From a virus, in the IMG/VR virus record IMGVR_UViG_3300025383_000006, positions 1 to 41,479 of that record: 41,479 bases of DNA; one strand, given 5' to 3'. The translations under genes were made by a program, and so were the position numbers. Positions 10,658 to 33,194 of this stretch are shown one piece after another; position 1 is the stretch's first letter; each line of letters starts with the position of its first letter. The notes beneath the pieces were generated by a model, which was not told where the DNA came from, did no database searches, and saw only the letters and a list, made by a program, of their open reading frames with translations.

Positions 10658-10807
10658 GTGAGCATACGCGAACAAAACACGCGAGTATTGCGTGACATTG
10701 AGAAGATTACAGAGCGAGCCTTACACGAGGCGTGGCTTACAGGCTACAACCAGGCTATCTACGATATGAACAACGACGTAGATGTAAAGGCAAGTGACAA
10801 TGAGTAG
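10658..10807 (+). CDS. Small helical protein upstream of whiB, 49 aa
   Basis: A 49 aa helical protein (MSIREQNTRVLRDIEKI...) that starts with GTG after the ribosome-binding site GGAAGG. Its 3' end overlaps the whiB start by 8 bp. It carries no metal motif. The sequence RALHEAWLTGYNQAIYDM resembles a short conserved motif in actinophage small proteins; no function can be given. Confidence 0.6.
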   Translation: MSIREQNTRVLRDIEKITERALHEAWLTGYNQAIYDMNNDVDVKASDNE

Positions 10808-11228
10808 AGCCGCCTGCTACGAAAATGGCGTAGACCCTGACATCTGGTTCCCCGAATCTATGAAGATCCGAGCCGAGGTAAATAAGCGGCTCATTGTAGA
10901 TCAAACTGAGACAAAAAAGGCGTTACTCGCTATGGAGATTTGCGAGACTTGTCCCATACGGAAAAAGTGTGTTGAGGTTGCTATGCAAGATATGTCCAGC
11001 ATAGACTATGGCATATACGGCGGCACATTACCGATGGAGAGAAGAAAGGCTATTAACGCCACCTATCGCGGAGCAGAAGGCGATATATGGCAACAGAACC
11101 TTCGCGCACTGGCAACCGCGAAAGGCTTGACTGTAATAGATATTCCCCCACACGAAAGGCCAACATCATTTATACAAATGTATCTCGAACAACGCCCACG
11201 TCGCGGCGCAGAATCTACGGATTTTTAG
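10800..11228 (+). CDS. whiB: WhiB family transcriptional regulator
   Basis: A 142 aa protein with the WhiB hallmarks. These are an N-terminal Cys followed by DPDIWFP, then CETCPIRKKC (C-x2-C-x5-C), giving four cysteines for a 4Fe-4S cluster, then the turn GIYGGT (usually G-V/I-W-G-G) and a basic segment MERRK. WhiB-like proteins bind the host primary sigma factor and DNA and occur only in Actinobacteria and their phages. I chose ATG 10800; GTG 10794 would add two residues. A C-terminal extension of about 50 residues follows the usual domain. It probably redirects host transcription, as shown for TM4 WhiB. Confidence 0.93.
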   Translation: MSRAACYENGVDPDIWFPESMKIRAEVNKRLIVDQTETKKALLAMEICETCPIRKKCVEVAMQDMSSIDYGIYGGTLPMERRKAINATYRGAEGDIWQQNLRALATAKGLTVIDIPPHERPTSFIQMYLEQRPRRGAESTDF

Positions 11229-11739: not shown

Positions 11740-12002
11740 CCCACGACGAACTATTGAAGAAAATTAAAGCGCAGGAAGAATACTGGACTAATCTCGTTCA
11801 CTACACCAAGCCTGAATTTTACGAGAATACAGTTGACCAGCGCAACGCATGGCAAGCCTTGAAGGCTGTTGTGGAATTGCACAAACCATTCTTCGGGCTT
11901 TGCCAAGTATGCAAACAAGAAGGTGACGAAGATACTTTCGATTACATAGGCGTTTCATACCCTTGCCCAACCATCCAAGCAATTGACAAGGCACTGTCAT
12001 GA
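11736..12002 (+). CDS. Conserved-type early protein, 88 aa
   Basis: An 88 aa mostly helical protein with a C-terminal CQVCKQ motif and a later single Cys (YPCPTIQAI). This combination (helical N-terminus, CxxC, then YPCxTIxAI) recurs in many small actinophage proteins of unknown function, perhaps with a zinc site. It overlaps its neighbours at both ends by 4 bp. Confidence 0.75.
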   Translation: MTHDELLKKIKAQEEYWTNLVHYTKPEFYENTVDQRNAWQALKAVVELHKPFFGLCQVCKQEGDEDTFDYIGVSYPCPTIQAIDKALS

Positions 12003-12817
12003 ACAAACTACCTACAGTATTTATCCATATCCTTGCCAAAGATAAGGCAGATGTATTGCCTTACTGGCTTGAACAGAACCTAGATAACCTGGATTATCCA
12101 CGCGACAAGATTTATCTGCACTTTCGCACAAACAATAACAACGATGACACGGCCAAGATTTTGCACCAGTGGATAGACGATCAACCTATCCGCGCTGCAC
12201 GCGGCTATGAGTCAGATGAGCATATGTTCGCATGGAAAAGCATCACCATTGACGATGAGGACATAGATGTACCTGTCCAGAACTACGGCGTACACGAATG
12301 GAATCCAACACGCTTTAAGGCACTGGCTAAACTGCGCCAAGAAGGTATAGATGAGGCTATCTTTTGGGAAGCAGACTTTTACTACACCTGCGATGTGGAT
12401 AACTTTGTTATCGGCTCAACCTTAAAGCAACTGGTCAGTTACAACTTGCCCGTAGTAGCCCCTCTTATTCGCTATGCGGTGGGTAAAGACGAGCATGCAC
12501 CTTATGCCAACTATCACAACTTAGCCACGGCAGAAGGCTATTACAAGGACAATCACGCCTACTACTCAGTCCTTAACGGAGCAGTACGCGGGCTGATCTT
12601 GTGTGATGTGGTTCACTGTACCTATCTCATTCGCAAGGATGTGTTACCAAAGGTAACCTATGCCGATGGAACTGATGACTATGAGTATGTTATCTTTAGC
12701 CGCAACCTACGCAAACTAGACATCCCGCAGTATCTGGATAACACCAAGATCTACGGATACCTAACACTTGATGAGGATGTAGCCGCTTGCCAGAAATGGA
12801 TGGCTACGCTAAAATAG
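11999..12817 (+). CDS. Glycosyltransferase resembling collagen galactosyltransferase (COLGALT/PLOD-type GT-A)
   Basis: A 272 aa GT-A-like enzyme. The N-terminus PTVFIHILAKDKADVLPYWL, the following LDYPRDKIYLHFRTNNNNDD, the segment LPVVAPLI (about 150-157), then GYY, VVHCTYLI (about 204) and TDDYEYVIFSRN (about 225) follow, in the same order, motifs I recall from animal COLGALT1 and viral PLOD-type domains. The expected DxD appears as FWEADF (about 123-127), E-x-D. It lies at the end of the early block, with 4 bp overlap upstream and a terminator downstream. Transfer of a sugar to protein hydroxyl groups is inference; the phage's own collagen-like fibre is an obvious candidate acceptor. Confidence 0.7.
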   Translation: MNKLPTVFIHILAKDKADVLPYWLEQNLDNLDYPRDKIYLHFRTNNNNDDTAKILHQWIDDQPIRAARGYESDEHMFAWKSITIDDEDIDVPVQNYGVHEWNPTRFKALAKLRQEGIDEAIFWEADFYYTCDVDNFVIGSTLKQLVSYNLPVVAPLIRYAVGKDEHAPYANYHNLATAEGYYKDNHAYYSVLNGAVRGLILCDVVHCTYLIRKDVLPKVTYADGTDDYEYVIFSRNLRKLDIPQYLDNTKIYGYLTLDEDVAACQKWMATLK

Positions 12818-16293: not shown

Positions 16294-16645
16294 TTGTCAC
16301 CTTGATCCATTGCTCTAAATCTTGAATGACCCAGGCATTCTCCATGCCGCCCATGCGACGTTTGACAATCACATAGGCGGGCGGAGTTGCTTCTAACCCA
16401 CGAGCCTTGGCGTAATTGGCTGCCTCAACGGTAGCCTCACGCCAAAACTGCGGTAGGTCCATCTTCGCAGTTGCTTTCAGTTCAAAGACGTATGGCTGTC
16501 CCGCAACCATACAGACTATATCCCCTTCATCATCCTTACCAGCAAGGCGTAGCCGCTCTGCTAATAACCCTCTGGAGCGAAGAAACTTCAGTATGCCAGT
16601 CTCAAAACTACTGCCTTTTTTGCGTGAATAGTTTGGATTAGCCAT
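16283..16645 (-). CDS. Holliday-junction-resolvase-like (Hjc/VRR-type) nuclease
   Basis: A 120 aa protein with the PD-(D/E)XK core: GSSFETGILKFLRSRG (helix 1 with Glu), DDEGDIVCMV (Asp), YVFELKAT (E-x-K), and WREATVEAANYA after it. This is the arrangement in archaeal Hjc and in VRR-NUC resolvases. It would resolve branched DNA before packaging. ATG overlaps the HNH gene's stop region by 8 bp. Confident as a restriction-fold nuclease, less so as resolvase. Confidence 0.75.
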   Translation of the reverse strand: MANPNYSRKKGSSFETGILKFLRSRGLLAERLRLAGKDDEGDIVCMVAGQPYVFELKATAKMDLPQFWREATVEAANYAKARGLEATPPAYVIVKRRMGGMENAWVIQDLEQWIKVTSGE

Positions 16646-17138
16646 CTTTTCTCCAATCGTTTTTTACCAATTGTAAGACATATTGCTTGCTAATCCCATA
16701 CTTTGTTGCCAGTATTGCTGTGTTACTTCCTCTGCCGCCAGGATGTGTAGGTTTATGCAAAGAGCGAATCTCTTTAACTTGTTCTTTCGTAAGTTTTGCG
16801 TTTCCAGATGCTTCGCCTTTTAATACAACTTTTCTCCCCTTGACGGCCATGTCAGTCATGTTGTCTTTATGGGTACCAACTGAAAGATGTTCTGGATTAA
16901 AACAAGGGGGATTGTCACATGAATGTAAAACAAACATGCCTTCTGGAATTGGACCTTTATATATTTCATAACTAGCCCTGTGGCAAAGAACCAGTTTTCT
17001 GGTTCCTGGTCCTTTCCCAATCATGCCATAGCCTTTATTGTTAACCCAGCCTGTAAATTCCCAGCAACCAGATGAAGTAATATTTCTTTTGTCTAAAAGT
17101 CTTTCTTCAAGACCTTTGCGCTTGCCGTATGTACTCAT
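16638..17138 (-). CDS. HNH homing-type endonuclease with C-terminal DNA-binding helix
   Basis: A 166 aa protein. It has an N-terminal segment GCWEFTGWVNNKGYG and a core HRASYEIYKGPIPEG, then VLHSCDNPPCFNPEHLSVGT: the HNH_3 layout (His, Asn, His). The C-terminal half EASGNAKLTKEQVKEI and ATKYGISKQYVLQLVKN is a helix-turn-helix type DNA-binding unit as in free-standing homing nucleases. It lies between the resolvase and the small gene upstream of it, sharing 4-8 bp with each. Either a mobile element or a domesticated packaging helper. Confidence 0.88.
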   Translation of the reverse strand: MSTYGKRKGLEERLLDKRNITSSGCWEFTGWVNNKGYGMIGKGPGTRKLVLCHRASYEIYKGPIPEGMFVLHSCDNPPCFNPEHLSVGTHKDNMTDMAVKGRKVVLKGEASGNAKLTKEQVKEIRSLHKPTHPGGRGSNTAILATKYGISKQYVLQLVKNDWRKDG

Positions 17139-17272
17139 AGACCAAGCATCTCGATAATGTCGTGCGCTTCGCGCTTAAGTAGAAACTTCTTAGCCAACTC
17201 ATAATCCTCTGGTCTAACATTGATGACCATGTTTTCTAGGCGCATAGCCGAGGTAGTAAAATCGTTACTCAT
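17135..17272 (-). CDS. Small protein, 45 aa, between helicase and HNH
   Basis: A 45 aa protein (MSNDFTTSAMRLENMVINVR ... EDYELAKKFLLKREAHDIIEM). It starts at an ATG overlapping the helicase stop (ATGA) and stops overlapping the HNH start (ATGA), so all three genes are coupled. It looks like one strand and a long helix. No function known. It may be a helicase accessory peptide by position (inference). Confidence 0.65.
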   Translation of the reverse strand: MSNDFTTSAMRLENMVINVRPEDYELAKKFLLKREAHDIIEMLGL

Positions 17273-18096
17273 TGCATATCCTTCCATGATGTTCCAATTG
17301 CTTGGGCTGCTCTGTCAGGATAGAGAGTCATACGGCTTGCATCTGCCCACAAAGTGACATACTGCGAACCATCGGCACTATTCTTAGCAAAGCGGTTCTT
17401 TACGCACGCTACACGAAACTCGCCTGTCATTGACACAAGTGCCACTGTCAAAATCATCTCTGGTAACTGTGCAATCTTTCCTTGGATAGCCTTACGTGCT
17501 GGTGGCACATCGGGCCGTCCTTCATTCTCTGTCGTGTGGTGAAGCAACATAACTGCTGCATCAGTCTCACGAGCAATGTGGTGCATCGCCTTGGCTATCT
17601 CACGTAGCCCCGACCATTCATCGTTATGAAGCGATACCACATTCATAGCGTTGTCCACAATAATCATGTGTGGATACTCGCCATATGCTTCTGCGTAAGC
17701 ACGGATGGATAGATCAATCTCATCCAGCGTAGGGGATGGGCTAAAGTCAAACTGTAGGTGTTTAATGCTTTCCAGTTCTTGACCGTAAAAGTCTTGACCT
17801 GCACCTGAAGCAAAGGCTGCTTCAACAGTAGCAACTTTATGTCCAGTAACCATCGCCGCTGCACGGATTGCAGTCGTATAAGCATCCGTATCTGCTGATA
17901 TGTACAGCGTTGGCACCTTCATCTGCACTGCCATGTAAAGGGCTAACAATGACTTACCAGCATTTGGCTGGCCTGCAATCATTGTCATCTGCCCCCGCCT
18001 GAACCTAATTCCTTCCGTTACCAACGGTTGAAATAGGTCAGGCAGTAGCGCGTAGTCATTGGTACTTTTCGCTGCCGCTTGATGTAAGGACAGCAT
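17269..18096 (-). CDS. RecA-fold replicative helicase / ATPase (DnaB- or RepA-like)
   Basis: A 275 aa P-loop ATPase: Walker A GQPNAGKSLLA (about residues 42-52), a downstream LYISAD, Walker B HMIIVDNAM (about 142-150), and the sensor-like VMLLHHTT (about 183-190), followed by KNRFAKN, an arginine-finger-type motif. This is the RecA-like core of DnaB/RepA helicases, here without the N-terminal DnaB domain. It probably unwinds DNA at the phage fork together with the two-part primase. The start ATG 18096 has no strong ribosome-binding site but lies 6 bp after the upstream stop. Confidence 0.85.
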   Translation of the reverse strand: MLSLHQAAAKSTNDYALLPDLFQPLVTEGIRFRRGQMTMIAGQPNAGKSLLALYMAVQMKVPTLYISADTDAYTTAIRAAAMVTGHKVATVEAAFASGAGQDFYGQELESIKHLQFDFSPSPTLDEIDLSIRAYAEAYGEYPHMIIVDNAMNVVSLHNDEWSGLREIAKAMHHIARETDAAVMLLHHTTENEGRPDVPPARKAIQGKIAQLPEMILTVALVSMTGEFRVACVKNRFAKNSADGSQYVTLWADASRMTLYPDRAAQAIGTSWKDMQ

Positions 18097-18487: not shown

Positions 18488-18742
18488 TTATTTCTCCTTT
18501 GTTGTTTTGTTTGCTTTTAGTTGTAAACCTTGTATTTGATAATCTGCGTTAATTTCTGAAACAATACCCGCATCAACCAAAATCTGCAGCAATTCTTTTA
18601 TTTTGCCGCCAACATAATCCATTGTCCAGACTTTATGGGCAAGACTAACATCGTCATGACCATGAGCGAGACTTTGCAACCATGCAATATCGCGCTGATG
18701 AGCATTAAGCATATGACGCATATGGTTATAATCTTTTCTCAT
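18488..18742 (-). CDS. Small hypothetical protein, 84 aa
   Basis: An 84 aa protein with a His-rich N-terminus (MRKDYNHMRHMLNAHQRD) and a helix-rich rest ending in Lys. ATG overlaps the nuclease stop (TAATG). No domain recognised; the histidines could bind metal. The spacing to the next gene is 1 bp, so it is part of the same transcript. Confidence 0.7.
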   Translation of the reverse strand: MRKDYNHMRHMLNAHQRDIAWLQSLAHGHDDVSLAHKVWTMDYVGGKIKELLQILVDAGIVSEINADYQIQGLQLKANKTTKEK

Positions 18743-19401
18743 TACTTCACCTCTGCTAGTGGGTCATAAATCTGTGCTAGTTGTCCGCCTACTGCGTAAC
18801 AGTAGTCTTTTACACCGCATGTGCTACATGACATACCGATGTTTGGTAAAAATATCTCAGCCTGTAGTCCACGCTCGAACTGAGCAAACATTTCTGTAAA
18901 TAATGGAACCGTCCAACGATCTAAACCAGATGCTTCTTCAAACTCAGCCTTGCGAGCAGAGTAGAAATAGCCCTTGCTTGGACGGATGCCAAATGTCATC
19001 TCCATGCAGCAGGCATACACACCCAATTGCATAGATGTTTCTGGTGTGTAAGCACCAGTCTTAAAATCAACTACTGCAAGTTCACCCGCTGGTGTAACTG
19101 CAATCAGATCGGCAAAGGCTTTGATAGGCACTTCACCAAACATGTTGTTAAATTCAATTTCAATGCCAGGAATGCCTTGTGGTGTTTGCCAAATCTCAAA
19201 GTGACTTTCTTGCCACACATTGATGAAGTCGAAGAACATTCTCTTGCCGTTTTCGTCCCACCATGCGCCATTTTCTTTATCGGGATTGGCTTTAGATGAT
19301 CGTCCACCACGACGCCAATCTTGTGGATTGGTACCGCTCTTAGCCTCAACCTCAGCAATCTGATTGGTAAAGGCTTCTTGCCAAATGGCATCCCATGTCA
19401 T
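18742..19401 (-). CDS. Cas4/RecB-like nuclease, catalytic C-terminal part (split)
   Basis: A 219 aa protein with the catalytic core of Cas4/RecB-type exonucleases: IEIEFNNMF, AFADLIAVTPAG (Asp), LAVVDFKTGAYTP (D-x-K), QLGVYA (Gln-motif), and a C-terminal CSTCGVKDYC holding three cysteines of a 4Fe-4S cluster. Its beginning MTWDAIWQEAF corresponds to the middle of intact actinophage homologues. The N-terminal domain, with the helical motif and the fourth Cys, lies separately at 20151-20369. The start overlaps the preceding gene by 4 bp. Confidence 0.85.
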   Translation of the reverse strand: MTWDAIWQEAFTNQIAEVEAKSGTNPQDWRRGGRSSKANPDKENGAWWDENGKRMFFDFINVWQESHFEIWQTPQGIPGIEIEFNNMFGEVPIKAFADLIAVTPAGELAVVDFKTGAYTPETSMQLGVYACCMEMTFGIRPSKGYFYSARKAEFEEASGLDRWTVPLFTEMFAQFERGLQAEIFLPNIGMSCSTCGVKDYCYAVGGQLAQIYDPLAEVK

Positions 19402-19589
19402 TCTTTAATTTCCTGTCCGAATACAATCTCTTGTGCTTTCTTCAGACCTACAATTGTAGCAGGATTAGTCTCAGCCTTAATCTCTTTCTGAATTAGATCA
19501 GATAGAGCCTTACGCATAAGTACCTCTGCCTCAACAAATGCCTGTTCAAAGGCAGTCTTGGTAATTAGTTGTGCGCGTTTTTTACCCAT
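19398..19589 (-). CDS. Small helical protein, 63 aa
   Basis: A 63 aa Lys/Glu-rich helical protein (MGKKRAQLITKTAFEQAF...). I chose ATG 19589, which has GGAG 7 bases upstream and overlaps the previous gene by 8 bp; a longer frame from 19613 lacks a site. It lies between the two nuclease pieces, directly before the catalytic one. No function known. Confidence 0.65.
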   Translation of the reverse strand: MGKKRAQLITKTAFEQAFVEAEVLMRKALSDLIQKEIKAETNPATIVGLKKAQEIVFGQEIKE

Positions 19590-19803
19590 TGTCTTGCTCC
19601 AAACTTGCTTCAAGAATAAATAAATCTAAATCTTCATCGGACATATCTTCCAAACGATTTTCCCATGCCCAACTAGGTACTGCCTTGCCAACTTCATCAG
19701 CAAGTTCAGTAACCATTTCCTCAATCTTTTGAGCAAGATTTGAAATTTTTGCCTCTAGGTTTATAAGGCGTTGATATTCTTTTAATTCTTCTTTAGTTTC
19801 CAT
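19582..19803 (-). CDS. Small acidic coiled-coil protein, 73 aa
   Basis: A 73 aa acidic protein with heptad-like repeats in residues 1-45 (KEYQRLINLEAKISNLAQ) and an acidic C-terminus (EDMSDEDLDLFILEASLE). The ATG overlaps the stop of the gene before (TAATG). It is one of four or five small genes placed between the two nuclease fragments. Confidence 0.7.
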   Translation of the reverse strand: METKEELKEYQRLINLEAKISNLAQKIEEMVTELADEVGKAVPSWAWENRLEDMSDEDLDLFILEASLEQDNG

Positions 19804-19934
19804 TATTCACAATCCTCACATGTTACGTTGTCGTTATGCCAGCAATCGCTGTCCCAATCGTACAAACTATTTAACTTTTCTGATGACCAACTGTTGATCC
19901 AGAGCAAGAATCTCTCGTATATGCGCTGGTACAT
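19803..19934 (-). CDS. Tiny Trp/Cys-rich protein, 43 aa
   Basis: A 43 aa protein that begins MYQRIYERFLLWINSW and ends NVTCEDCE, with a CxxC pair and one other Cys. Its ATG overlaps the upstream TGA (TGATG) and its TAA overlaps the next ATG (TAATG), so both couplings are exact. A competing overlapping frame in this stretch has no such links. The function is unknown; possible zinc site. Confidence 0.6.
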   Translation of the reverse strand: MYQRIYERFLLWINSWSSEKLNSLYDWDSDCWHNDNVTCEDCE

Positions 19935-20149
19935 CAATTGTCCAACTTTGGCATAGGCGCAACTGCGAGCGAGTCACATAGCGCACACCGCATATCCAAG
20001 AAGTAGATGCCCAATTCACCGTCATCATCAAACTTGCACTTGACATTCCACAAGTCGCTGCCACATGGACAGATACTGATTGGACCAAGTGAACGGTAGT
20101 CTGCTTCTGATCCTGGTGTTGCTCTAAGGTCTGCAATCTCGTTACTCAT
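19934..20149 (-). CDS. Zinc-ribbon protein, 71 aa
   Basis: A 71 aa protein with CPCGSDLW, then CKF and CALCDS, a four-Cys (plus one) zinc ribbon over a beta-rich body (GELGIYFLDM). ATG 20149 lies one base after the stop of the N-terminal nuclease fragment. It could bind DNA or the nuclease. No family assigned. Confidence 0.7.
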   Translation of the reverse strand: MSNEIADLRATPGSEADYRSLGPISICPCGSDLWNVKCKFDDDGELGIYFLDMRCALCDSLAVAPMPKLDN

Positions 20150-20150
20150 T

Positions 20151-20369
20151 TCAGAAAGGTATCTCCGTATCTTTTAATGTGGTGTTGGTCTTTTCAAATT
20201 CCTTGAGCAGAAACTTCTCTGCTGCTGCGTGAAACGCAGACCCACCGACGAACCACCATGCAGGTTCGCTTGGTGCTTGCAAGCCACGCTCTAACTGCCA
20301 TGCTTTGCCACAGCGTAGCCATGATGTAAATGAACTAAATGATCTGTGATTTACCTTTGTTTCTTTCAT
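20151..20369 (-). CDS. Cas4/RecB-like nuclease, N-terminal part (split)
   Basis: A 72 aa protein matching the N-terminal domain of actinophage Cas4-like nucleases. The motif SFSSFTSWLRCGKAWQLERG carries the single N-terminal Fe-S Cys, and WWFVGGSAFHAAAEKF is the [G]-x-x-x-H helix motif before the core. It stops after EIPF, just where the intact protein would run on into WDAIW. The catalytic part is encoded 750 bp away at 18742-19401. It is the first gene of the block; no ribosome-binding site precedes its ATG. Confidence 0.8.
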   Translation of the reverse strand: MKETKVNHRSFSSFTSWLRCGKAWQLERGLQAPSEPAWWFVGGSAFHAAAEKFLLKEFEKTNTTLKDTEIPF

Positions 20370-20375
20370 GGCTGA

Positions 20376-20406
20376 AATGTAGCAGTGCCTATGAATGGCG
20401 TGTCAA
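20376..20406 (-). promoter_or_regulatory. Promoter for the replication block, possibly leaderless
   Basis: On the minus strand TTGACA (20406-20401) and TACATT (20381-20376) are 19 bp apart; a weaker TGCTAC offers 16. TACATT lies 6 bases before the ATG at 20369, so transcription would start at or beside the start codon. The first gene has no Shine-Dalgarno sequence, in line with a leaderless transcript, common in Actinobacteria. Two direct repeats GGCGTGTCA (20397-20405 and 20423-20431, plus strand) overlap and flank the -35. Confidence 0.5.
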
Positions 20407-20572: not shown

Positions 20573-20941
20573 ATGGCTCAATGGATCCATCGCTTATCTG
20601 GCGTTGACCCGACGGCTCGTACAGCCATTTGCAGGGAATGCGGGCCAATTAAAATCAAGGTCGTAAACCTTTCCAGTGGTAAGAAAACATTTCGATGTAT
20701 GAAAAGTTACAAGAAGCACAAAACCCCGTGGAAAAAGTTTAAGAAAGATAAGTGCGAACATTGTGGCTTCGTGCCAACCCATCCTTCACAACTGGATGTT
20801 GACCATATAGACGGCAATAATAAAAACAATAGTCTTGAAAATCTTATGACATTATGCGCAAATTGCCACAGGCTAAAGACAGCAATTTACAAGGACTGGA
20901 ACAACAAAATAGCCCCCACCGCCGATGGCGATGAGGGCTAA
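20573..20941 (+). CDS. HNH endonuclease
   Basis: A 122 aa protein with an N-terminal zinc pair CRECG, a basic middle, then CEHCGF, LDVDHIDGNNKNNSLENL and CANCHR: the HNH core with two flanking CxxC zinc knuckles. It is a lone plus-strand gene among minus-strand genes, with its own promoter, so it may be a recent insertion. Phage HNH proteins often assist the terminase in cleaving DNA; a free-standing homing nuclease is the alternative. Its last codons overlap a terminator for the opposite strand. Confidence 0.88.
   Translation: MAQWIHRLSGVDPTARTAICRECGPIKIKVVNLSSGKKTFRCMKSYKKHKTPWKKFKKDKCEHCGFVPTHPSQLDVDHIDGNNKNNSLENLMTLCANCHRLKTAIYKDWNNKIAPTADGDEG
20911..20939 (-). terminator. Terminator downstream of the lysis cassette
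   Basis: On the minus strand AGCCC ... CGCC-ATC-GGCG ... GGGCT (20939-20911) is followed by ATTTTGTTG. It lies just after the holin-like gene ends at 20958 and inside the 3' end of the convergent HNH gene. It probably ends the late transcript. Confidence 0.65.
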
Positions 20942-29144: not shown

Positions 29145-29587
29145 TAGATTGCTCCTGTTTCTTTCATTACCTTTGCGCTTTGCTTGGTAATCTTTGCTGC
29201 TGCTGGCATAGTGCCTGCATCAAATGCTGTGCCTAGTTTGTCGCTGGCTTCTTTAGCCTCTGCTACAGCCTTCATGGTTGTACCTGCAGGTTGGATGCCT
29301 TGTGAGCGGGCATCTGCATAAGCATCTAGTTCGGCATTCCACTTCTTGGATGACATTCCCTTATTACCAGCGGCATCACCTGTAGATAACTCTAAGGTCT
29401 TAGCCTTGCAGCCAAAGCAACCTTCTGTATATTCAGTATGCTTGGAATGCTCAGATGGTTCTTCTTCGTACTTGGGAATTTTTGTAAATACATCGTCGCA
29501 CTTGGTGCAACCGTATTTAATTGGTACTGAGTCGTAATTAGCGTCTAAGCCCCAGTCAAGGATTTTTACTGTGTGTTGATGTGGCAT
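29144..29587 (-). CDS. Zinc-ribbon virion-block protein, 147 aa
   Basis: A 147 aa protein with CTKCDD (about residues 27-32) and CFGCKAK (about 57-63), a split four-Cys zinc site, followed by an Ala/Lys-rich helical tail. ATG 29587 lies inside the 3' end of the glycosyltransferase gene (32-bp overlap). The function is unknown; the tail looks like a DNA- or capsid-contact segment. Confidence 0.7.
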   Translation of the reverse strand: MPHQHTVKILDWGLDANYDSVPIKYGCTKCDDVFTKIPKYEEEPSEHSKHTEYTEGCFGCKAKTLELSTGDAAGNKGMSSKKWNAELDAYADARSQGIQPAGTTMKAVAEAKEASDKLGTAFDAGTMPAAAKITKQSAKVMKETGAI

Positions 29588-30632
29588 TCTTCACCTGTCT
29601 AAAGAAGTTAAGGTTGCGTTGGATACGCTCTGTTTCTTCGCCATTGCCCTTTACGGCTTGTTCAGCAAAGACTATTGCTTCGTCAATATGCTTGAGGTTG
29701 TAAGCAGCGATTGAGGCAAGGTCATAGGCTTTCCAGTCCCACACCGCTGATTCGTAGCAGTAATGGACGGAGCGATGACGTTCCAAAGCGTTAATAGAAG
29801 CATCTAAACACCTTGTCCAATCCTCACGACGGTATGCGTCAATTGCTACGCCATACCATGATTCGCCTTCACGGGGAAGAAGTTGTACGCCTTTGTCATA
29901 CCAGGCAGTGGCTTGTTCATGCAAGCCCAGTTGGTGACAAGCCTCACCTGCCCATCGGCAGACAGCGGCTTGTTCTACATCCCATCCATTGAGCGGTACT
30001 TGTTTCTCCGCTGAGTCAATAACATCTTGCCATCTATGGTGGAAGTAATACTCACGAGTCATATAGGTCCACATGCGTGGATCTTGAGGATTTTCTTTTA
30101 CTGCCATTTCTAACAATGTTAGATATTGTCCTCTGGATTTACTATTGTCTGGTAGGTGTTGGATAACGGCATTGCGGATATCGCAATCTCGTGTATCGCC
30201 TTGCCCGTACCACAACTGCACTTCGTGGCATGGATATTTCCAGTACCAACCGAACCTTGAGTGAAGCCTGTCCCTCTCCCATTTTTGCCCAGTATCCATG
30301 CTGATCCAGCCAAGATGTGAACCTGATACCCATTTCTGCCTGACTTTCTTGAAGAAAGTCGGTTCTGGCACTTCGTCCATATCCAAGATAAGACAGACAT
30401 CGGCATCCTCTGGGACAAGTGATAATGCTGTATTGCGAGCCACATCAAAGCGAAACGGTTCTAGGTGAATCTGATAAACGGTAACGCCTAATGCTCGTAG
30501 CATATCTTGGCTACCATCGGTAGATCCAGTATCTACTACTATGCGATAGTCGGCATCTTTCGTTGCCTCAACCCACCGCAGGATATGTTTAGATTCATTC
30601 TTGCATATAGAGTAGGTTGCTATCTTGACCAT
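29556..30632 (-). CDS. GT2-family glycosyltransferase with C-terminal TPR repeats
   Basis: A 358 aa protein. Residues 1-110 are a GT2-type GT-A domain: MVKIATYSICKNESKHILRW, VVDTGSTDGSQDML and LILDMDEVPE with the DxD metal motif (about 84-86). From about residue 190 come TPR-like helical repeats (WAGEACHQLGLHEQATAWYD, and later SIAAYNLKHIDEAIVFAEQA). It follows the collagen-like fibre gene with 19 bp between, in the same transcript. TPR units in glycosyltransferases commonly hold protein acceptors, so modification of the neighbouring fibre is plausible (inference). Confidence 0.85.
   Translation of the reverse strand: MVKIATYSICKNESKHILRWVEATKDADYRIVVDTGSTDGSQDMLRALGVTVYQIHLEPFRFDVARNTALSLVPEDADVCLILDMDEVPEPTFFKKVRQKWVSGSHLGWISMDTGQKWERDRLHSRFGWYWKYPCHEVQLWYGQGDTRDCDIRNAVIQHLPDNSKSRGQYLTLLEMAVKENPQDPRMWTYMTREYYFHHRWQDVIDSAEKQVPLNGWDVEQAAVCRWAGEACHQLGLHEQATAWYDKGVQLLPREGESWYGVAIDAYRREDWTRCLDASINALERHRSVHYCYESAVWDWKAYDLASIAAYNLKHIDEAIVFAEQAVKGNGEETERIQRNLNFFRQVKNATSTHSKNP

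Positions 30633-30651: not shown

Positions 30652-33194
<2,543 letters not shown>

What the first reader, a model, noticed from the sequence alone, without database searches (positions are those of the whole stretch)
18742..20369. Cas4/RecB-like nuclease split in two, with Fe-S cysteines on both chains
The N-terminal domain (20151-20369, Cys in LRCGKAW) and the catalytic domain (18742-19401, with CSTCGVKDYC) are separate genes with at least four small coupled genes between them. In Cas4-type enzymes one N-terminal and three C-terminal Cys bind the same 4Fe-4S cluster, so here the cluster would have to form between two proteins.
Basis: partly seen in the sequence, partly recalled or inferred. 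Interest (0 to 1): 0.8.

Follow-up and report, generated by a model that had tools for sequence, protein, structure and literature searches.

The report
Two-piece Cas4-like phage nuclease
A DNA-cutting enzyme that phages normally make as one protein is made by this aquatic actinobacterial phage and its many relatives as two separate proteins, and the residues for the iron-sulphur cluster and for the cutting site are divided between the two, so they probably work only as a pair.

Summary
The split is real and is not an assembly error. The N piece (20151-20369, 72 aa) and C piece (18742-19401, 219 aa) match complementary halves of one phage exonuclease family (phrog_1870 positions 14-69 and 77-293). 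In 80 environmental relatives of the C piece the N piece lies upstream on the same strand in 76; in the other four the contig ends within 455 bp upstream of the C gene. A second clade is split as well, usually as two overlapping genes, sometimes with an insert. It includes two records that I identify as the cultured Planktophila phages E7 and F5. No fused form was seen among the 160 split-clade loci, whereas related actinophages have one gene near the same DnaB-like helicase. Both pieces are under purifying selection. The N piece carries one invariant Cys and, beyond the finding, an invariant His matching the RecB/Cas4 metal-ligand His. The C piece carries D98, D112, K114 and C-x2-C-x5-C; its extra cysteines are not conserved. 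Best explanation: an obligate N:C heterodimer of the Cas4/AddB/AdnA type whose 4Fe-4S cluster and active site span two chains. Assembly, cluster and activity are inferred. It misses the Cas4 equivalog cut-off: Cas4-like, not Cas4.

The parts
20151..20369 (-). N piece (72 aa): N-terminal subdomain of the Cas4/AddB-like nuclease; Cys20 codon 20312-20310, His47 codon 20231-20229
   Evidence: phrog_1870 14-69 and phrog_69; invariant S10, S12, C20, L26, G43, A45, H47, E51 in A5; dN/dS 0.17 in the window clade
19934..20149 (-). Intervening gene F1 (71 aa), zinc-ribbon-like CPCG...CALC protein, found in 56 of the examined inserts
   Evidence: conserved family F1, dN/dS 0.17; no Pfam or PHROG hit
19803..19934 (-). 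Optional intervening gene F4 (43 aa)
   Evidence: family F4 in 8 loci
19582..19803 (-). Optional intervening gene F6 (73 aa)
   Evidence: family F6 in 4 loci
19398..19589 (-). Intervening gene F0 (63 aa), found in 59 of the examined inserts; its stop overlaps the start of the C piece (ATGA)
   Evidence: family F0, dN/dS 0.23; sequence
18742..19401 (-). C piece (219 aa): catalytic PD-(D/E)XK core (E81, D98, D112, K114, Q125, Y129) plus C-x2-C-x5-C (Cys192/195/201, codons 18828-18799)
   Evidence: PDDEXK_1 E 8.3e-12; phrog_1870 77-293; AdnA by profile E 2.6e-10; fold matches to ACE1, AdnA, Cas4, Dna2, AddAB
18488..18742 (-). Next gene of the same gene string (84 aa, unknown)
   Evidence: ORF and start/stop overlap with the C piece
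17269..18096 (-). DnaB-like replicative helicase, the syntenic neighbour of the fused nuclease in actinophages
   Evidence: phrog_243 E 1.2e-69; the same neighbour in RER2, Remus, PA6, Astro, Herbertwm

Best explanation
The ancestral one-chain Cas4/AddB-type exonuclease of actinophages was split in the loop between the His-bearing helix and the next helix. The two halves are now separate, coupled genes, and small genes settled between them in some lineages. The N chain (Ser-x-Ser, one Cys, His, Glu) and the C chain (D, D, K, Q, Y and three Cys) are thought to assemble as an obligate 1:1 heterodimer: the N Cys and the three C Cys hold one 4Fe-4S cluster, which clamps the two chains together, and the N His completes the metal site of the C chain's PD-(D/E)XK core. 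The enzyme would act as a DNA exonuclease in phage replication or recombination, near the DnaB-like helicase. Shown here: the split, its conservation, purifying selection, residue conservation and homology to one-chain enzymes. Inferred: physical assembly, the cluster, activity, polarity and biological role.
For: Complementary halves of one family. N piece upstream of C piece in 76 of 80 window-clade loci, with 365-749 bp between in the 75 genomes (window included) where both genes are complete. Second clade: N found in 79 of 80 loci, never fused; among 76 with both genes complete, 71 overlap by 8-20 nt and 5 carry inserts of about 300-955 bp. C start codon ATG, GTG or TTG in all 151. Purifying selection: median dN/dS N 0.17 and 0.07, C 0.12 and 0.11. 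Invariant Cys and His in N; D, D, K and three Cys in C. Fused homologues at the same genomic place in cultured actinophages and fused in other environmental phages. The C model has a confident core (pLDDT about 90-97) but an ill-defined Cys region (about 50-56); the fused homologue is confident throughout, with the Cys region at 80-84 and the fission point in the loop 51-56 between helices 33-50 and 57-78. Structural neighbours: ACE1, AdnA, AddB, Cas4. In Sso0001 changing any one of the four Cys, the N-terminal one included, gave insoluble protein (PMC3466216). Split T4-like phage enzymes (Aeh1 NrdA, phage 25 DNA polymerase) are active as reassembled chains (PMC2988022).
Against: No direct evidence of complex formation, Fe-S content or activity. 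The window N piece alone scores just under the Pfam cut-off (19.4 against 22), and its profile alone finds no solved Fe-S nuclease. The lower pLDDT of the Cys region in the C-only model could reflect alignment depth. A fold of both chains together could not be made here. A zinc ion instead of Fe-S cannot be excluded: 3L0A, a DUF3799 relative with the four-Cys arrangement, was solved with zinc (PMC3466216).
Confidence: 0.82

Rival explanations
1. Only the C chain is the working nuclease; the N piece is an independent small protein or a remnant with another role.
For: The C chain has the D, D, K, Q, Y core and models as a confident PD-(D/E)XK fold alone.
Against: The N piece is under purifying selection about as strong as the C piece and keeps exactly the Cys, His, Ser and Glu of the fused enzymes. 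It was found in 155 of 160 loci; in the other five the contig ends 10-454 bp upstream of the C gene.
Confidence: 0.1
2. The two ORFs are joined at expression (programmed frameshift, intron or bypass), so one fused protein is made.
For: In most second-clade loci the ORFs overlap by 8-20 nt in different frames, a geometry that a frameshift could use.
Against: It cannot serve the window clade (365-749 bp of conserved genes between) or the inserted second-clade loci. C has its own start codon everywhere. No Rfam intron. The inserts carry genes under purifying selection.
Confidence: 0.05
3. Assembly rearrangement or pseudogene in this one contig.
For: None found.
Against: 155 of 160 related contigs show the same split; dN/dS well below 1; the window looks complete with a single copy of each piece.
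Confidence: 0.01
4. The four Cys form a zinc site, not a 4Fe-4S cluster; the heterodimer is otherwise as described.
For: A DUF3799 homologue with the same four-Cys arrangement carries zinc in its crystal structure 3L0A (PMC3466216); 3L0A is a fold neighbour of the fused homologue.
Against: The nearest structural and sequence relatives are AdnA, ACE1, AddB and Cas4; Sso0001 and Sso1391 of the Cas4 family are iron-sulphur proteins. That AdnA and ACE1 also carry such a cluster is my own knowledge, not tested here.
Confidence: 0.12

Closest known systems
phrog_1870 / actinophage 'Cas4 family exonuclease' (Rhodococcus RER2, Gordonia Remus, Mycobacterium Astro, Cutibacterium PA6)
   Same: Homologous over both halves; same gene position upstream of the DnaB-like helicase; same Cys and His/D/D/K pattern
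   Different: One gene and one chain in those phages; here two genes, in the window clade with other small genes between them
AdnA nuclease domain of mycobacterial AdnAB (6ppu, 7sjr)
   Same: Best sequence-profile match to a solved structure for the C piece; C-x2-C-x5-C aligned
   Different: AdnA is a one-chain helicase-nuclease; no helicase domain here
CRISPR Cas4 / Sso0001 and Argonaute-associated ACE1
   Same: Same fold and N-terminal Cys plus three C-terminal Cys layout
   Different: Below the Cas4 equivalog cut-off (24.1 against 65 bits); split into two chains; no cas gene among the ten proteins of the region scanned with Pfam
Split phage enzymes: Aeh1 NrdA, T4 topoisomerase 39/60, phage 25 DNA polymerase 43A/43B
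   Same: Contiguous phage enzyme gene divided in two, polypeptides reassemble (PMC2988022)
   Different: Those are mostly tied to homing endonucleases; here no endonuclease family was identified in the inserts, the split is conserved through two large clades, and a metal-cluster site is divided as well

Membership tests
PD-(D/E)XK nuclease, Cas4/AddB/RecB-like (PF12705 PDDEXK_1) | Profile score above the curated cut-off | tested here: met
   C piece 46 bits against 22; window N piece 19.4, just below; second-clade N 31.2 and C 31.0 bits
PD-(D/E)XK nuclease, Cas4/AddB/RecB-like (PF12705 PDDEXK_1) | Catalytic D, D/E-x-K, Q-hxxY and upstream His | tested here: met
   D98, D112, K114, Q125, Y129 invariant in C; H47 invariant in N; that the His is the metal ligand rests on motif position and on PMC12538437
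4Fe-4S (AddB-type) nuclease | One N-terminal and three C-terminal Cys as cluster ligands | tested here: met
   All four Cys invariant, but on two chains; ligation itself not tested
4Fe-4S (AddB-type) nuclease | Bound 4Fe-4S cluster and exonuclease activity | not testable with these tools
   needs purified protein
CRISPR-associated Cas4 | TIGR00372 equivalog cut-off (65 bits) | tested here: not met
   window C 24.1 bits; fused RER2-like L174 48.1 bits
CRISPR-associated Cas4 | Association with cas1/cas2 or a CRISPR array | tested here: inconclusive
   no cas gene among the ten proteins of the region scanned with Pfam; arrays and the rest of the genome were not searched for them
Actinophage exonuclease phrog_1870 | Homology over the whole profile | tested here: met
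   N 14-69 and C 77-293 of 313
Actinophage exonuclease phrog_1870 | Single continuous chain | tested here: not met
   two ORFs wherever both pieces could be seen, 155 of 160 split-clade loci

The most novel reading that the evidence does not exclude
An obligate heterodimeric nuclease in which both the 4Fe-4S cluster and the metal-dependent active site are completed by a 60-72 residue partner chain that acts as an activator subunit, so that the phage controls nuclease activity by separate expression of the small chain (first gene, possibly leaderless) and the catalytic chain.
Probability: 0.2. Interest if true: 0.78.

Novelty: new variant of a known kind. Interest (0 to 1): 0.64.

Why it matters
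Cas4/AddB-type nucleases are one-chain enzymes in which the Fe-S cluster staples the fold together. A stable, widespread natural split that puts one cluster ligand and one active-site ligand on a separate small protein would be a natural split-enzyme system, a test of how Fe-S clusters assemble between chains, and a marker of a large family of phages of abundant aquatic actinobacteria. Cultured members with a cultured host appear to exist (E7 and F5 on 'Ca. Planktophila' LanE-43), so it can be tested directly.

Tried and rejected
Intron or other RNA element between the pieces: no Rfam match in the window stretch beyond a chance hit, none at gathering threshold in 12 related loci. Second intact copy elsewhere in the window: none. 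Extra Cys in the C piece as the fourth ligand: not conserved. Homing endonuclease as the cause of the split: no endonuclease family among the conserved inserts (Pfam/PHROG scans of the window's inserts and one 955-bp insert); an HNH gene lies just upstream of the N piece at 20573-20941(+), but outside the split. One or two origins of the split: the tree places Cutibacterium fused forms beside the second split clade, but long branches meet and the AU test does not reject a single origin (p 0.22), so this is unresolved. Close relatives in cellular genomes: only remote matches. A first alignment over too diverse sequences could not be used for a genome scan. N-only profile against the PDB: no nuclease.

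Full report
1. The observation. The 219-aa C piece (18742-19401, -) matches Pfam PDDEXK_1 with E 8.3e-12 and phrog_1870, a phage exonuclease family, with E 3.9e-37 over profile positions 77-293. The 72-aa N piece (20151-20369, -) matches the same phrog_1870 over positions 14-69 (E 3.7e-8) and phrog_69 (E 1.1e-12). The two pieces are thus complementary halves of one known protein. Between them lie four small coupled genes whose stops and starts touch or overlap.

2. It is not an artefact. The window carries a 127-bp direct terminal repeat, as a complete circular assembly does, with one copy of each piece. A scan of IMG/VR found 122 stretches encoding relatives of the C piece; the best 80 were fetched. 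In 76 of them the N piece lies upstream on the same strand. The other four contigs end 55-454 bp upstream of the C gene. In the 75 window-clade genomes with both genes complete (the window included), 365-749 bp separate the N stop from the C start, and the C frame is closed a short way upstream.

3. A second, distant clade is split too. Two records labelled Caudovirales sp. ct2KA10 (OX376640, OX376641) have the N and C halves as overlapping ORFs in different frames. The OX376640 title reads LanE43-AprE7, and the two lengths (39,112 and 38,889 bp) fit phages E7 (39.1 kbp) and F5 (38.9 kbp), isolated on 'Ca. Planktophila' LanE-43 of the order Nanopelagicales (PMC10202952); identifying the records with those phages is my inference. 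A scan with the E7 C half gave 305 relatives, of which 80 were fetched. 79 have the N half and none is fused. Of 76 with both genes complete, 71 overlap by 8-20 nt and 5 carry inserts of about 300-955 bp. In the overlapping loci the C gene has its own start codon inside the end of the N gene, for example GAGAATGGTTAA in L116, the arrangement expected for translational coupling.

4. The one-chain relatives. Rhodococcus RER2, Gordonia Remus, Mycobacterium Astro and Herbertwm, and Cutibacterium PA6 carry the same enzyme as one gene, a few genes upstream of the DnaB-like helicase. The window has the same helicase downstream of the C piece (17269-18096, phrog_243 E 1.2e-69). Scans with RER2 and PA6 returned 18 and 59 loci, nearly all with matches running across both halves; those I translated to their stops were single open chains. 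The tree supports each split clade (98/96 and 100/98). Whether they share one fission is undecided (AU p 0.22).

5. Selection and residues. Median pairwise dN/dS is 0.17 (N) and 0.12 (C) in the window clade and 0.07 and 0.11 in the other. Invariant in N across split and fused proteins are S10, S12, C20, L26, G43, A45, H47 and E51. Invariant in C are, among others, E81, D98, D112, K114, T115, Q125, L126, Y129, C192, C195 and C201. Every distinct window-clade N piece has exactly one Cys, as have 27 of 28 in the second clade. Twelve window-clade and 47 second-clade C pieces have only the three clustered Cys. If the fused enzymes are the guide, the fourth cluster ligand can therefore come only from the N chain. 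The published Cas4/AddB layout is one N-terminal plus three C-terminal Cys, and in Sso0001 changing any one of the four gave insoluble protein (PMC3466216).

6. The active site is divided as well. In this superfamily the metals are bound by a conserved His together with Asp and Glu of the RecB motif (PMC12538437). The invariant His of the G-x-A-x-H-x-x-x-E stretch is on the N chain, while D, D and K are on the C chain. That this His is the metal ligand is by motif position and my knowledge of RecB and Cas4, not by a solved structure here. In AdnA the profile places S-x-S...C opposite SPSTLQMLTDC, but with a score that is not significant by itself.

7. Structure. A model of the window C piece has a confident core (pLDDT mostly above 90 from residue 61 to 170) and a poorly defined Cys region (about 50-56). 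Its fold neighbours are ACE1, AdnA, MGME1, Cas4, SSO0001, Dna2 and AddAB. A model of a fused environmental homologue (L187) is confident almost throughout (mean 91.2), with the Cys region at 80-84 and a loop at residues 51-56 between helices 33-50 and 57-78, where the split falls. It matches ACE1 (TM up to 0.66), AdnA and AddB over both halves. The contrast between the two models agrees with a Cys region that needs the N chain, but alignment depth could also play a part.

8. What lies between. In the window clade nearly all inserts hold two conserved genes, F1 (zinc-ribbon-like, 56 ORFs) and F0 (59 ORFs), plus optional small genes of families F3-F7, F10 and F12; the family F2 is a shifted-frame shadow of F1. 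F1 and F0 are under purifying selection (dN/dS 0.17 and 0.23). The second clade has a different insert family, F8, where it has any. No intron family was found. The likely history is fission to overlapping coupled genes, then entry of small genes at the junction.

9. Mechanism and limits. I commit to an obligate N:C heterodimer with a 4Fe-4S cluster and a metal site built across the chains, working as a DNA exonuclease in replication or recombination (about 0.82). Assembly, cluster, activity and polarity are inferred. Precedent for functional split phage enzymes exists (Aeh1 NrdA, phage 25 polymerase; PMC2988022). My paper searches found no report of a split Cas4/AddB-type nuclease, but the library is partial. 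It is a new variant of a known kind: membership in the PD-(D/E)XK Fe-S nucleases by sequence is met, membership in Cas4 proper is not.

Noticed in passing
window 20369-20406, - strand: TTGACA (20406-20401), 19 nt, then TACATT of TGCTACATT ending about 7 nt before the N start codon; the TGYTAY element recurs in the window-clade loci shown. Looks like a leaderless promoter for the N gene; the standard scan missed it because of its spacing limit.
   Followed up: partly
window 20573-20941 (+): HNH endonuclease (Pfam HNH E 4.9e-7) on the opposite strand just upstream of the N piece.
   Followed up: partly
window 10794-11228 (+): ORF with the look of a WhiB-like regulator (CETCPIRKKC), which PMC10202952 treats as an indicator of actinophages.
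   Followed up: no
window 11999-12817 (+) and 29556-30632 (-): Two glycosyltransferase-like ORFs by eye; related Nanopelagicales phages are reported to carry glycosyltransferases.
   Followed up: no
window 30652-32853 (-): Long collagen-like G-x-T repeat protein (733 aa).
   Followed up: no
window 16638-17138 (-): A second HNH endonuclease in the replication region, downstream of the helicase (phrog_1872 E 1e-30).
   Followed up: no
L124:4045-5017: A 955-bp insert between the halves in the second clade holds a coiled-coil-like ORF of family F8 and a DUF7574-like ORF.
   Followed up: partly
OX376640 / OX376641: Records labelled Caudovirales sp. ct2KA10 appear to be the cultured Planktophila phages E7 and F5; OX376640 carries no annotation in the collection.
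   Followed up: partly
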